The position numbers were made by a program, and so were the translations under genes. A stretch of 40,155 nucleotides of DNA from assembly GCA_030648955.1 (NCBI GenBank), contig JAUSHB010000018.1:1-40155 (forward strand), read 5' to 3'. The stretch is from a bacterium. GTDB lineage: Bacteria > Patescibacteriota > Minisyncoccia > Phycocordibacterales > JAUSHB01. The notes below the pieces were generated by a model. The model did not search any database and had not been told where the DNA came from. It worked only from the letters and a program-made list of their open reading frames with translations. Below, one piece after another: positions 8,260-30,575 of this stretch; position 1 is the first letter of the stretch; each line of letters begins with the position of its first letter.

Positions 8260-8346
8260 GGAGGGGTCGCATAGTGGTTTAGTGCACCACCTTGGAAAGG
8301 TGGCATACCTTTATCGGTATCGGGAGTTCGAATCTCCCCCCCTCCG
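8260..8346 (+). tRNA. tRNA-Ser (GGA)
   Basis: Acceptor GGAGGGG (8260-8266) pairs with CCCCTCC (8339-8345), with discriminator G at 8346. The anticodon stem CCACC/GGTGG encloses a loop with anticodon GGA, reading UCC and UCU. A long class II variable arm (ACCTTTATCGGTAT region) and a T-arm GGGAG-TTCGAAT-CTCCC are present. At 87 nt it is typical for serine. CCA is not encoded (the sequence continues GCAATGG). A second copy of the T-loop-to-acceptor end lies 190 bases downstream, with CCA. Confidence 0.96.
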
Positions 8347-8358
8347 CAATGGCCCGTT

Positions 8359-8383
8359 CGCAATGCGCTCTGCGCGCATTGCG
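8359..8383 (+). other. hairpin between tRNA-Ser and the structured element
   Basis: CGCAATGCGC (8359-8368) pairs with GCGCATTGCG (8374-8383): 10 perfect base pairs, loop TCTGC. It lies in the same position as the hairpin between tRNA-Gly and its element at 30350-30385, but the two stems are unrelated in sequence. Confidence 0.7.
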
Positions 8384-8398
8384 GCGAGACATCAATAT

Positions 8399-8536
8399 GG
8401 AGAAGGAAGCGGAGCTTTCGTGAGGTTCGAACAGCGGAGCCATGTTTTTTCAGCAGGAAAAACAGGCGAGCTGGTGCCCAGACAAACTTTTACGACGGTA
8501 AAAGTTTAGTCGCGGGCGAATCTCCCCCCTCCGCCA
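8399..8536 (+). ncRNA. tRNA-adjacent structured element, copy 1
   Basis: This is a homologue of 30391-30538. Shared blocks are TCGAACAGCGGAG (8427-8439), CATGTTTTTT, CGAGCTGGTG-C-CCAGAC (8467-8483) and AGTCGCGG. Helices: terminal GGAG/CTCC (8399-8402/8529-8532); GGAAGC/GCTTTC (8405-8410/8414-8419); GAGGTTCG/CGAATCTC (8422-8429/8517-8524); GCC-TGTTTTT/AAAAACA-GGC (8439-8449/8458-8467); CTGG/CCAG; and a local hairpin AAACTTTTAC/GTAAAAGTTT. The last 20 bases repeat the 3' end of tRNA-Ser from the T-loop, followed by an encoded CCA. It is either a tRNA-targeting non-coding mobile element or a structured RNA processed with the tRNA. I know no named family that fits. Confidence 0.6.
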
Positions 8537-8628
8537 GATTACCAAGTTTGAACCGAAGCAAAATAAGGGTTTTAATGTACATCTAAAAGATTTATAATAA
8601 AGATATTAACTACTTTATAAAATAATTT

Positions 8629-30260: not shown

Positions 30261-30270
30261 TTTAAATCAT

Positions 30271-30341
30271 GCGGGTATAGTTTAGTGGTAGAATGGCTGC
30301 TTCCCAAGCAGCAGATCGGAGTTCGATTCTCCGTACCCGCA
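30271..30341 (+). tRNA. tRNA-Gly (CCC)
   Basis: Acceptor GCGGGTA (30271-30277) pairs with TACCCGC (30334-30340), discriminator A at 30341. The anticodon stem GCTGC/GCAGC encloses loop TTCCCAA, anticodon CCC, reading GGG. The D-arm contains TAGTTTAGTGGTAGAA and the T-arm is CGGAG-TTCGATT-CTCCG. CCA is not encoded (ATTGG follows). A second copy of the T-loop-to-acceptor end with CCA lies at 30519-30538. Confidence 0.96.
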
Positions 30342-30349
30342 TTGGCAAT

Positions 30350-30385
30350 CAACAAAAAACTGCTTAAAAGAGCAGTTTTTTGTTG
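30350..30385 (+). terminator. hairpin between tRNA-Gly and the structured element
   Basis: CAACAAAAAACTGCT (30350-30364) pairs perfectly over 15 bp with AGCAGTTTTTTGTTG (30371-30385); the T-run is inside the 3' arm. It may terminate part of the tRNA transcripts or be the first hairpin of the downstream element. Confidence 0.7.
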
Positions 30386-30390
30386 GCCAG

Positions 30391-30538
30391 TGCGAGGGCA
30401 GGAAGTGCCCTACGGCACTTCCGTGGGGAATCGAACAGCGGAGTCATGTTTTTTATCAAAAAACAGACGAGCTGGTGTCCAGACCGAGGCGAGTGGCGAC
30501 GAGCCGAGAGTCGCGGAAGATTCCCCGTACTCGCACCA
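30391..30538 (+). ncRNA. tRNA-adjacent structured element, copy 2
   Basis: Homologue of 8399-8536. Shared blocks: TCGAACAGCGGAG (30431-30443), CATGTTTTTT, CGAGCTGGTG-T-CCAGAC (30468-30484) and AGTCGCGG. Helices: terminal GCGAG/CTCGC (30392-30396/30530-30534), GGAAGTGCC/GGCACTTCC (30401-30409/30414-30422), GGGGAATC/GATTCCCC (30425-30432/30519-30526), GTC-TGTTTTTT/AAAAAACA-GAC (30443-30454/30458-30468) and CTGG/CCAG. Relative to copy 1, three helices change on both strands and stay paired. The 3' end repeats tRNA-Gly from the T-loop, then ACCA. Function unknown. Confidence 0.6.
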
Positions 30539-30575
30539 AAATAAAGGTTCCTCGGGGCAAGCCCCGAGGAACCTT
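30537..30575 (-). terminator. terminator of the DUF1328 gene
   Basis: AAGGTTCCTCGGGGC (30544-30558) and GCCCCGAGGAACCTT (30561-30575) form a perfect 15-bp stem. On the minus strand it is followed by TTTATTTT and lies 40 bases after the DUF1328 stop. Confidence 0.8.

What the first reader, a model, noticed from the sequence alone, without database searches (positions are those of the whole stretch)
8347..8536. Two homologous structured elements, each directly behind a tRNA gene
Copies at 8399-8536 (behind tRNA-Ser) and 30391-30538 (behind tRNA-Gly) share TCGAACAGCGGAG, CATGTTTTTT, CGAGCTGGTG-Y-CCAGAC and AGTCGCGG in the same order. Three helices differ in sequence yet stay paired in both: GGAAGC/GCTTTC vs GGAAGTGCC/GGCACTTCC; GAGGTTCG/CGAATCTC vs GGGGAATC/GATTCCCC; GCC/GGC vs GTC/GAC. 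Paired changes imply selection on an RNA fold. Each copy follows an extra hairpin after its tRNA. It is not a protein gene, and I know no named RNA family that fits. It could be a processed RNA, a tRNA-maturation element or a tRNA-targeting non-coding mobile element.
Basis: partly seen in the sequence, partly recalled or inferred. Interest (0 to 1): 0.92.

Follow-up and report, generated by a model that had tools for sequence, protein, structure and literature searches.

The report
Tiny structured mobile elements behind tRNAs
About half the tRNA genes of this ultra-small (Patescibacteria) genome are followed by a non-coding insert of roughly 130-190 bases that folds into a conserved shape, carries both a direct and a mirror copy of that tRNA's own 3' end, and behaves like a new kind of mobile DNA passenger parked at tRNA genes.

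Summary
Both window copies belong to a previously unlisted structured family (no Rfam match) found in 204 of 397 genomes sampled from the order, and sporadically elsewhere in the phylum. All 29 core base pairs show compensatory changes. Of 147 distinct copies examined, 120 lie just downstream, on the same strand, of a tRNA or tmRNA gene; 41 gene types are represented.

Each core sits between a reverse-complement copy (left arm) and a direct copy (right arm) of the 3' end of that particular tRNA, from T-loop to discriminator base. Uninterrupted sites in related genomes show that the right arm and what follows are the original tRNA end and trailer, so the unit is an insertion that leaves a regenerated tRNA upstream. 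Occupancy and core class differ between orthologous tRNAs of congeneric genomes. Cores cluster by genome, not tRNA type. A few units carry a gene (NlpC/P60, methyltransferase).

Best reading: a mostly non-coding integrative element at the tRNA T-loop, whose folded end acts in mobility. A tRNA-maturation gene is unlikely. The enzyme, and how the arms are re-matched to each new tRNA, are unknown.

The parts
8260..8347 (+). tRNA-Ser(GGA); its 3' end (tRNA positions 53-73, T-loop to discriminator) is 8326-8346
   Evidence: ARAGORN and Rfam RF00005
8348..8397 (+). spacer with GC-rich hairpin 8359-8368/8374-8383 (no T-run here)
   Evidence: sequence; analogous terminator-like spacer hairpins in most other units
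8398..8402 (+). left arm, acceptor part (complement of tRNA 3' acceptor strand; degenerate in this copy)
   Evidence: sequence; arm statistics
8405..8419 (+). hairpin hp1 that splits the left arm
   Evidence: sequence; hp1 nearly identical across genomes and isotypes in other units
8420..8431 (+). left arm, T part (complement of tRNA T-loop/T-stem 3' strand)
8432..8517 (+). structured core: CAGC/GCTG (8432-8435/8470-8473), hairpin 1 (8439-8467), GCCC/GGGC (8476-8479/8514-8517), hairpin 2 (8481-8511)
   Evidence: model R1 hit 116.3 bits; covariation; fold
8518..8533 (+). right arm: displaced original 3' end of tRNA-Ser (A58 to discriminator)
   Evidence: matches 8331-8346; uninterrupted tRNA-Ser in G216 shows the native order
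8534..8573 (+). native tRNA-Ser trailer CCAGATTACCAAGTTTGAACCGAAG..., displaced downstream of the unit
   Evidence: same or near-identical trailer directly behind intact tRNA-Ser(CGA) and tRNA-Ser(GGA) in G216 (L264, L268)
30270..30342 (+). tRNA-Gly(CCC); 3' end 30321-30341
30346..30389 (+). spacer with bidirectional-terminator-like hairpin 30350-30364/30371-30385
30390..30396 (+). left arm, acceptor part GTGCGAG, pairs with 30530-30536
30401..30422 (+). hairpin hp1
30424..30435 (+). left arm, T part
30436..30518 (+). structured core (CAGC 30436-30439/GCTG 30471-30474; TCC 30478-30480/GGA 30515-30517, compensatory to CCC/GGG elsewhere)
   Evidence: R1 hit 101.3 bits
30519..30538 (+). right arm: displaced 3' end of tRNA-Gly (30519-30535) followed by encoded CCA (30536-30538)
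   Evidence: arm statistics

Best explanation
These are short, mostly non-coding integrative elements. One unit is [spacer hairpin] - [left arm: complement of the tRNA 3' end, often split by hairpin hp1] - [structured core] - [right arm]. Insertion happens at the T-loop, the only sequence nearly shared by all tRNAs and tmRNA. The tRNA upstream keeps or regains an intact 3' end, and the original 3' end with its native trailer is displaced to the right of the core, where it becomes the right arm. Shown here: the arms, the target duplication, uninterrupted sites, tandem arrays, high turnover between orthologous tRNAs, no phylogenetic link between core and tRNA type, and occasional cargo genes. 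Inferred: the folded strand (left arm pairing with right arm, two-domain core in the loop, tRNA-sense strand) is the form used in mobility. The favoured version is a folded single-stranded attachment site, used in trans by a recombinase encoded elsewhere, like the forked-hairpin attP of CTXphi or an integron attC. The one tyrosine recombinase present in essentially every carrier genome (a Xer type in the window's genome) is the obvious candidate. An RNA acting as targeting guide is the second choice. Not explained: how both arms become matched to each new tRNA.
For: Position: 120 of 147 distinct copies lie downstream on the same strand of a tRNA or tmRNA, 41 gene types, median 62 nt from tRNA end to model start; most of the rest have a contig edge or an unusual or intron-containing tRNA just upstream. 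Arms: at the variable tRNA positions 62-64 and 66-71, both arms match the cognate tRNA at about 0.72-0.90, against about 0.25-0.57 with tRNA ends swapped between loci. Uninterrupted sites: tRNA-Ser in G216 runs directly into the trailer that in the window stands right of the right arm; tRNA-Trp of G142 lacks the 163-nt unit present in G081 with aligned flanks. Turnover: the tRNA-Ile(tat)/recG locus carries three different core classes in three congeneric genomes; detected occupancy 20/42, 13/41 and 14/35 differs between orthologs. Spread: on a tree of 114 cores, tRNA isotype shows no signal (87 changes, shuffled 87.6 +/- 2.2) while genome does (87, shuffled 93.9 +/- 1.7). Cargo: NlpC/P60, a 310-aa methyltransferase-like ORF with a tandem second unit, and a 192-aa ORF lie between tRNA and unit. 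Folded strand: core pairs show G-U well above A-C (65:12 and 51:17), at the level of tRNA stems of the same genomes. Recombinase: one tyrosine recombinase in the own genome, best NCBIfam match XerA-like, and 1-3 domain matches in each of 16 other carriers.
Against: No unit contains a recombinase, no excised form was seen, and units are absent from the plasmid and phage collections and from viral contigs apart from chance coding matches. Ordinary site-specific recombination does not explain how an inverted copy of a new target arises, nor why near-identical cores in one genome carry different cognate arms. Covariation and the G-U excess are equally expected of a transcribed RNA. The uninterrupted sites compare species, not strains. 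The cargo cases are few and could be incidental. Core trees rest on about 85 nt, and gene conversion of cores within a genome could mimic spread.
Confidence: 0.6

Rival explanations
1. A cellular regulatory or processing RNA: the left arm pairs with the 3' end of its own tRNA (or pre-tRNA) and controls its folding, 3' trimming, CCA addition or stability; the right arm is a decoy copy.
For: The left arm stays complementary to the tRNA where the right arm has diverged (164 positions against 17). The strand is the tRNA strand and G-U tolerance equals that of tRNA stems. Both window copies end in CCA, and the Gly copy folds with a tRNA-like 7-bp end stem.
Against: About half of the tRNAs of one genome lack a unit, including most that encode CCA. 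Orthologous tRNAs in one genus lack units or carry unrelated cores. In most copies a terminator-like hairpin stands between tRNA and unit. The arms decay with no G-U over A-C preference (41:36), unlike the core.
Confidence: 0.15
2. An RNA-guided insertion system: the unit is transcribed, and arms plus core form a guide for a recombinase or nuclease acting in trans on tRNA genes, in the manner of bridge RNAs or transposon-borne homing guides.
For: Conserved scaffold (core plus hp1) with interchangeable target-matched segments. Targets are nearly always tRNA-like 3' ends.
Against: No partner protein identified; reverse transcriptase is absent from 6 of 17 carriers; IS110-type and CRISPR-type proteins were not searched. 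No evidence of transcription.
Confidence: 0.12
3. An intron-like element in the T-loop: the transcript is spliced from the T-loop to the core/right-arm junction, and the left arm acts like the internal guide of a group I intron (it spans both junctions).
For: The left arm is complementary to the sequence across both would-be splice junctions. The core is under structure selection and spreads between tRNA types. Some relatives have intron-like sequence in a tRNA upstream of a unit (L078, L201).
Against: No Rfam group I or II match. The core is only about 85-100 nt. The upstream tRNA is already complete, so splicing is not needed. Spacer terminators would stop transcription before the core.
Confidence: 0.08
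4. Remnants of replication template-switching at tRNA palindromes (quasi-palindrome correction), with no active mobility.
For: Spacer hairpins are continuous with left-arm pairing to the tRNA end in many units. Both arms look like independently decaying copies.
Against: Homologous cores recur in half of the sampled genomes of the order and in other classes, are under strong structural selection and differ at orthologous sites; random template switching would not supply the same core.
Confidence: 0.05

Closest known systems
tRNA/tmRNA-integrated genomic islands (Islander set, PMC4383910)
   Same: Target gene regenerated upstream, displaced 3' fragment in the same orientation downstream, T-region crossover, tandem arrays.
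   Different: About 130-190 nt in most cases, usually no ORF, no integrase seen, a conserved structured end, and an additional inverted copy of the target; dozens per genome at many tRNA types.
CTXphi folded single-strand attP (PMC3089051) and integron attC sites
   Same: CTXphi: two inverted copies about 90 bp apart fold into a forked hairpin whose stem is the attachment site, used by the host Xer recombinases. Here two inverted arms flank a two-domain core and carriers have a tyrosine recombinase of Xer type.
   Different: The target is the tRNA T-loop, not dif or attI; the core is conserved and covarying; arms are matched to dozens of different targets; recombinase use is unproven.
HDV-like theta ribozymes beside phage tRNAs (PMC10879173)
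   Same: Small structured RNA-like element beside tRNA genes.
   Different: Theta ribozymes abut the tRNA within about 1 nt, belong to gut phages and have an HDV fold; here a spacer intervenes, the hosts are Patescibacteria, arms copy the tRNA, and no HDV-family match was found.
IS110 bridge RNAs (PMC11208160)
   Same: A structured element encoded at a mobile element's end, with segments matched to the target.
   Different: No recombinase ORF in the unit; here the arms are complements of each other and of one target; transcription unknown.

Membership tests
tRNA-integrated genomic island | intact tRNA plus displaced, same-orientation 3' fragment bounding the insert | tested here: met
   direct copies of tRNA 3' ends right of the core; uninterrupted sites
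tRNA-integrated genomic island | insert carries an integrase gene | tested here: not met
   no ORF in most units; only cargo found is NlpC/P60, a methyltransferase-like ORF and one unknown ORF
tRNA-integrated genomic island | length of at least 2 kb (Islander filter) | tested here: not met
   most units about 120-290 nt; longest accepted cargo case about 1.6 kb
Integron cassette array | integron integrase (IntI) in the genome | tested here: not met
   single tyrosine recombinase of own genome scores 126 against a cut-off of 265 for integrase_gron; best match XerA-like
Integron cassette array | an ORF in front of each recombination site | tested here: not met
   most units lack an ORF
Integron cassette array | attC-type R and L box motifs in the recombination site | not tested
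   no attC model was run; none was apparent on reading the arms
Folded single-strand attP (CTXphi type) | inverted att copies about 90 nt apart that fold into a forked hairpin | tested here: met
   left and right arms about 75-110 nt apart with a two-hairpin core between them
Folded single-strand attP (CTXphi type) | integration by Xer recombinase at its site | not testable with these tools
   a Xer-type recombinase is present; activity unknown
HDV-like theta ribozyme | match to an HDV-type covariance model, cleavage site within about 1 nt of the tRNA end | tested here: not met
   no Rfam match up to E = 10 at the Ser copy; median 62 nt from tRNA end to model start
Group I or group II intron | match to intron covariance models | tested here: not met
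   no Rfam match in the window or in 99 kb of other unit-bearing loci
Any Rfam RNA family | score at or above gathering threshold | tested here: not met
   only tRNA and tmRNA reported
IS110 bridge-RNA element | DEDD recombinase ORF next to the RNA | tested here: inconclusive
   most units have no ORF at all; the two cargo proteins scanned have no transposase match; trans-encoded copies elsewhere not searched

The most novel reading that the evidence does not exclude
A programmable tRNA-targeting mobile system: a conserved scaffold (core plus hp1) with two interchangeable target segments that are re-written to match each new tRNA or tmRNA gene at insertion, moved in trans by a host recombinase through a folded single strand (DNA or RNA), and occasionally carrying genes, so that the tRNA genes of Patescibacteria serve as scattered cassette platforms.
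Probability: 0.25. Interest if true: 0.96.

Novelty: categorically new. Interest (0 to 1): 0.86.

Why it matters
Patescibacteria have very small genomes, yet here about half of the tRNA genes of one genome carry a structured insert found in about half of the sampled genomes of the order and absent from Rfam. The units could be the smallest integrative elements known at tRNA genes. Their arms pose a new mechanistic question, how an element obtains both a direct and an inverted copy of whichever tRNA it sits behind, which strain pairs, RNA-seq and a recombination assay can test. If cargo cassettes prove general, tRNA genes would be gene-capture platforms in this phylum.

Tried and rejected
Viral or plasmid origin: one exact-pattern hit in viral contigs was coding sequence; a gapped core pattern hit 31 viral contigs, all without the rest of the core, none with a tRNA, R1 scores at most 22.9 bits; a second core class gave no hits; blastn against phage and plasmid collections gave none. 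The non-Patescibacteria hits showed no left/right core and no tRNA. Reverse-transcriptase-based copying by a resident enzyme: RT found in 11 of 17 carriers only. Tyrosine integrase inside units: none seen. Left arm strictly tracking the right arm: rejected. Vertical, tRNA-type-specific lineages: rejected for the core and not supported for spacer plus hp1 (36 same-isotype matches, 33.5 expected). A kissing interaction between the hp1 loop (ACTGCT) and the hairpin 1 loop (AGCAG) was considered and dropped, because copies with ACCA loops lack it. Long-range cargo candidates at L071 and L367 were dropped as chance arm matches or host genes. Literature searches found no description of such elements.

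Full report
CHECK OF THE OBSERVATION. tRNA-Ser(GGA) and tRNA-Gly(CCC) lie at 8260-8347 and 30270-30342. The two downstream copies share the listed blocks in order and the listed helices are re-paired. CGAGCTGGTGYCCAGAC occurs twice in the window and not elsewhere at three mismatches (0.10 expected). Both copies fold better than all shuffles (z -4.9, -6.8). Rfam 15 reports only the two tRNAs and nothing else up to E = 10 at the Ser copy.

Comparing the copies with their tRNAs shows that the right arm is a direct copy of the adjacent tRNA's 3' end, from about position 58 in the T-loop to the discriminator base. The left arm is its reverse complement, often split between acceptor and T parts by a hairpin (hp1). 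At variable positions 62-64 and 66-71 the arms match the cognate tRNA at about 0.72-0.90, against about 0.25-0.57 when tRNA ends are swapped between loci. Where the right arm differs from the tRNA, the left arm pairs with the tRNA at 164 positions and with the right arm at 17, so the two arms decay independently. Arm positions were chosen by best match, which favours agreement; the swapped control carries the same bias, that only in part.

THE FAMILY. A pattern scan of reference genomes gave about 40 Patescibacteria loci (Taylor-, Nomura-, Kaiser-, Vogel-, Yonathbacteria and relatives); hits in other phyla lack the element and the tRNA. An alignment of 35 cores gives 29 pairs, 20 with two-sided changes. 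On 67 matches aligned to the model (some overlap with the 35), all 29 pairs have two-sided changes, 93% of cells pair, and the covariation score is 0.76 (shuffled 0.21; slid at most 0.12). That alignment was fitted to the model, which leans toward its structure. For example the closing helix switches from CAGC/GCTG to CGGC/GCCG, and CCC/GGG to TCC/GGA. The model finds 15 copies in the window's genome, matches in 41 of 60 relatives, in 204 of 397 genomes of the order, and in about a dozen genomes of other orders and classes of the phylum; every locus read from that search contains a tRNA, in most cases directly upstream. Other core classes use the same arm plan: in the window's genome I count 23 of 48 tRNA/tmRNA genes followed by a unit, by reading the sequences. 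None of the classes in the 17 loci scanned is in Rfam.

POSITION. Of 147 distinct matches in fetched loci, 106 lie within 200 nt and 14 within 201-450 nt downstream of a same-strand tRNA or tmRNA, 41 gene types in all. Most of the remaining 27 sit at contig edges or behind odd or intron-containing tRNAs; a few have non-tRNA targets.

INSERTION. In G216, tRNA-Ser(CGA) and tRNA-Ser(GGA) run directly into CCAGATTACCAAGTTTGAACCG or a near match. In the window and in G142 that trailer stands right of the right arm. The right arm is therefore the original tRNA end and the unit is an insertion; this also explains the CCA behind right arms whose tRNA gene now lacks it. tRNA-Trp of G081 carries a 163-nt unit that is absent from G142, with aligned flanks on the right. 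At tRNA-Ile(tat) next to recG, three congeneric genomes carry three different core classes. Detected occupancy in these genomes is 20/42, 13/41 and 14/35 and differs between orthologs; these are lower bounds, because some 'empty' sites carry core classes that the detector missed. Tandem units occur. In three cases an ORF lies between tRNA and unit: NlpC/P60, a methyltransferase-like protein (assigned by reading, not by profile), and an unknown 192-aa protein.

SPREAD. On a tree of 114 cores, tRNA isotype carries no signal (87 changes, shuffled 87.6 +/- 2.2), while genome does (87, shuffled 93.9 +/- 1.7, lowest of 200 shuffles 89). Near-identical cores follow Arg, Ser and other tRNAs of the window's genome with cognate arms. 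Either cores move between tRNAs and the arms are re-matched, or cores are homogenised within genomes while arms are held to the tRNA.

RNA OR DNA. Core pairs contain 2.8% G-U, like tRNA stems of the same genomes (2.5-3.4%), and far fewer A-C, so the tRNA-sense strand is the one that folds. That fits a transcript or a folded DNA single strand. The arms show no such asymmetry (41 G-U, 36 A-C).

MECHANISM. I favour an integrative element whose folded end is its attachment site. CTXphi is the nearest precedent: two inverted sites about 90 bp apart fold into a forked hairpin used by host Xer recombinases (PMC3089051). The window's genome has one tyrosine recombinase, best matched to a XerA-like model; 16 other carriers have one to three domain matches. 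Presence in every genome makes it available but proves nothing, since Xer is near-universal. Reverse transcriptase is not universal among carriers. No unit was found in viral contigs, phages or plasmids beyond chance coding matches. How both arms come to match a new tRNA is unexplained and is the most unusual feature.

COMPARISON. Islander-type islands share the regenerated tRNA and displaced fragment but carry an integrase and exceed 2 kb (PMC4383910). Theta ribozymes sit beside phage tRNAs but abut them and have an HDV fold (PMC10879173). Bridge RNAs match targets but come with a recombinase (PMC11208160). No family's defining features were all met, so I rate the system categorically new, with moderate confidence in mobility and low confidence in any particular enzyme.

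LIMITS. Genomes are mostly metagenome assemblies; uninterrupted sites are between species; cores are short; cargo cases are few; IS110-type, serine-recombinase and Cas1 proteins were not searched in the genomes; transcription was not tested.

Noticed in passing
L084 1460-1875 (G000 C13, behind tRNA-Gly(tcc)): A unit whose core is interrupted by about 300 nt containing two tandem copies of a roughly 50-nt repeat; a related inserted module also appears in the Val(gac) unit, as if cores accept nested inserts.
   Followed up: partly
L360 (G183 tRNA-Asn) and L078: At the end of the cargo, before the unit, stands a motif like AGTTCTGAACTCGTCCA...GGGGAGCA; it resembles a T-loop plus acceptor end without a tRNA and recurs in different genomes.
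   Followed up: no
L212 (G026 C7, near 423529-423636): A copy not behind a tRNA: it sits at the 3' end of an apparent protein gene, flanked by about 70 bp of near-identical direct repeat.
   Followed up: no
L281 (G000 C13:107360-107878): The only tyrosine recombinase of the window's genome lies beside what looks, by reading, like a CCA-adding enzyme gene.
   Followed up: partly
G000 tRNA-Pro(cgg), tRNA-Ser(tga), tRNA-Ile(tat) (L158, L150, L135): These tRNAs are followed by direct partial copies of their own 3' ends without a recognisable core, possibly remnants of lost insertions.
   Followed up: no
L045 and L060 (Taylorbacteria), G000 Leu(caa) L162: A different, larger core class (GGAAGGGGTCGGGAAACGGG...) uses the same antisense and direct tRNA arms; several further core classes exist and deserve their own models.
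   Followed up: no
L078, L201: tRNA genes upstream of units contain sequence resembling group I intron ends (GATATAGTCC); the tRNA finder missed these genes.
   Followed up: no
window 30544-30574: A long perfect hairpin (AAGGTTCCTCGGGGCAAGCCCCGAGGAACCTT) follows the Gly unit, probably a terminator.
   Followed up: no
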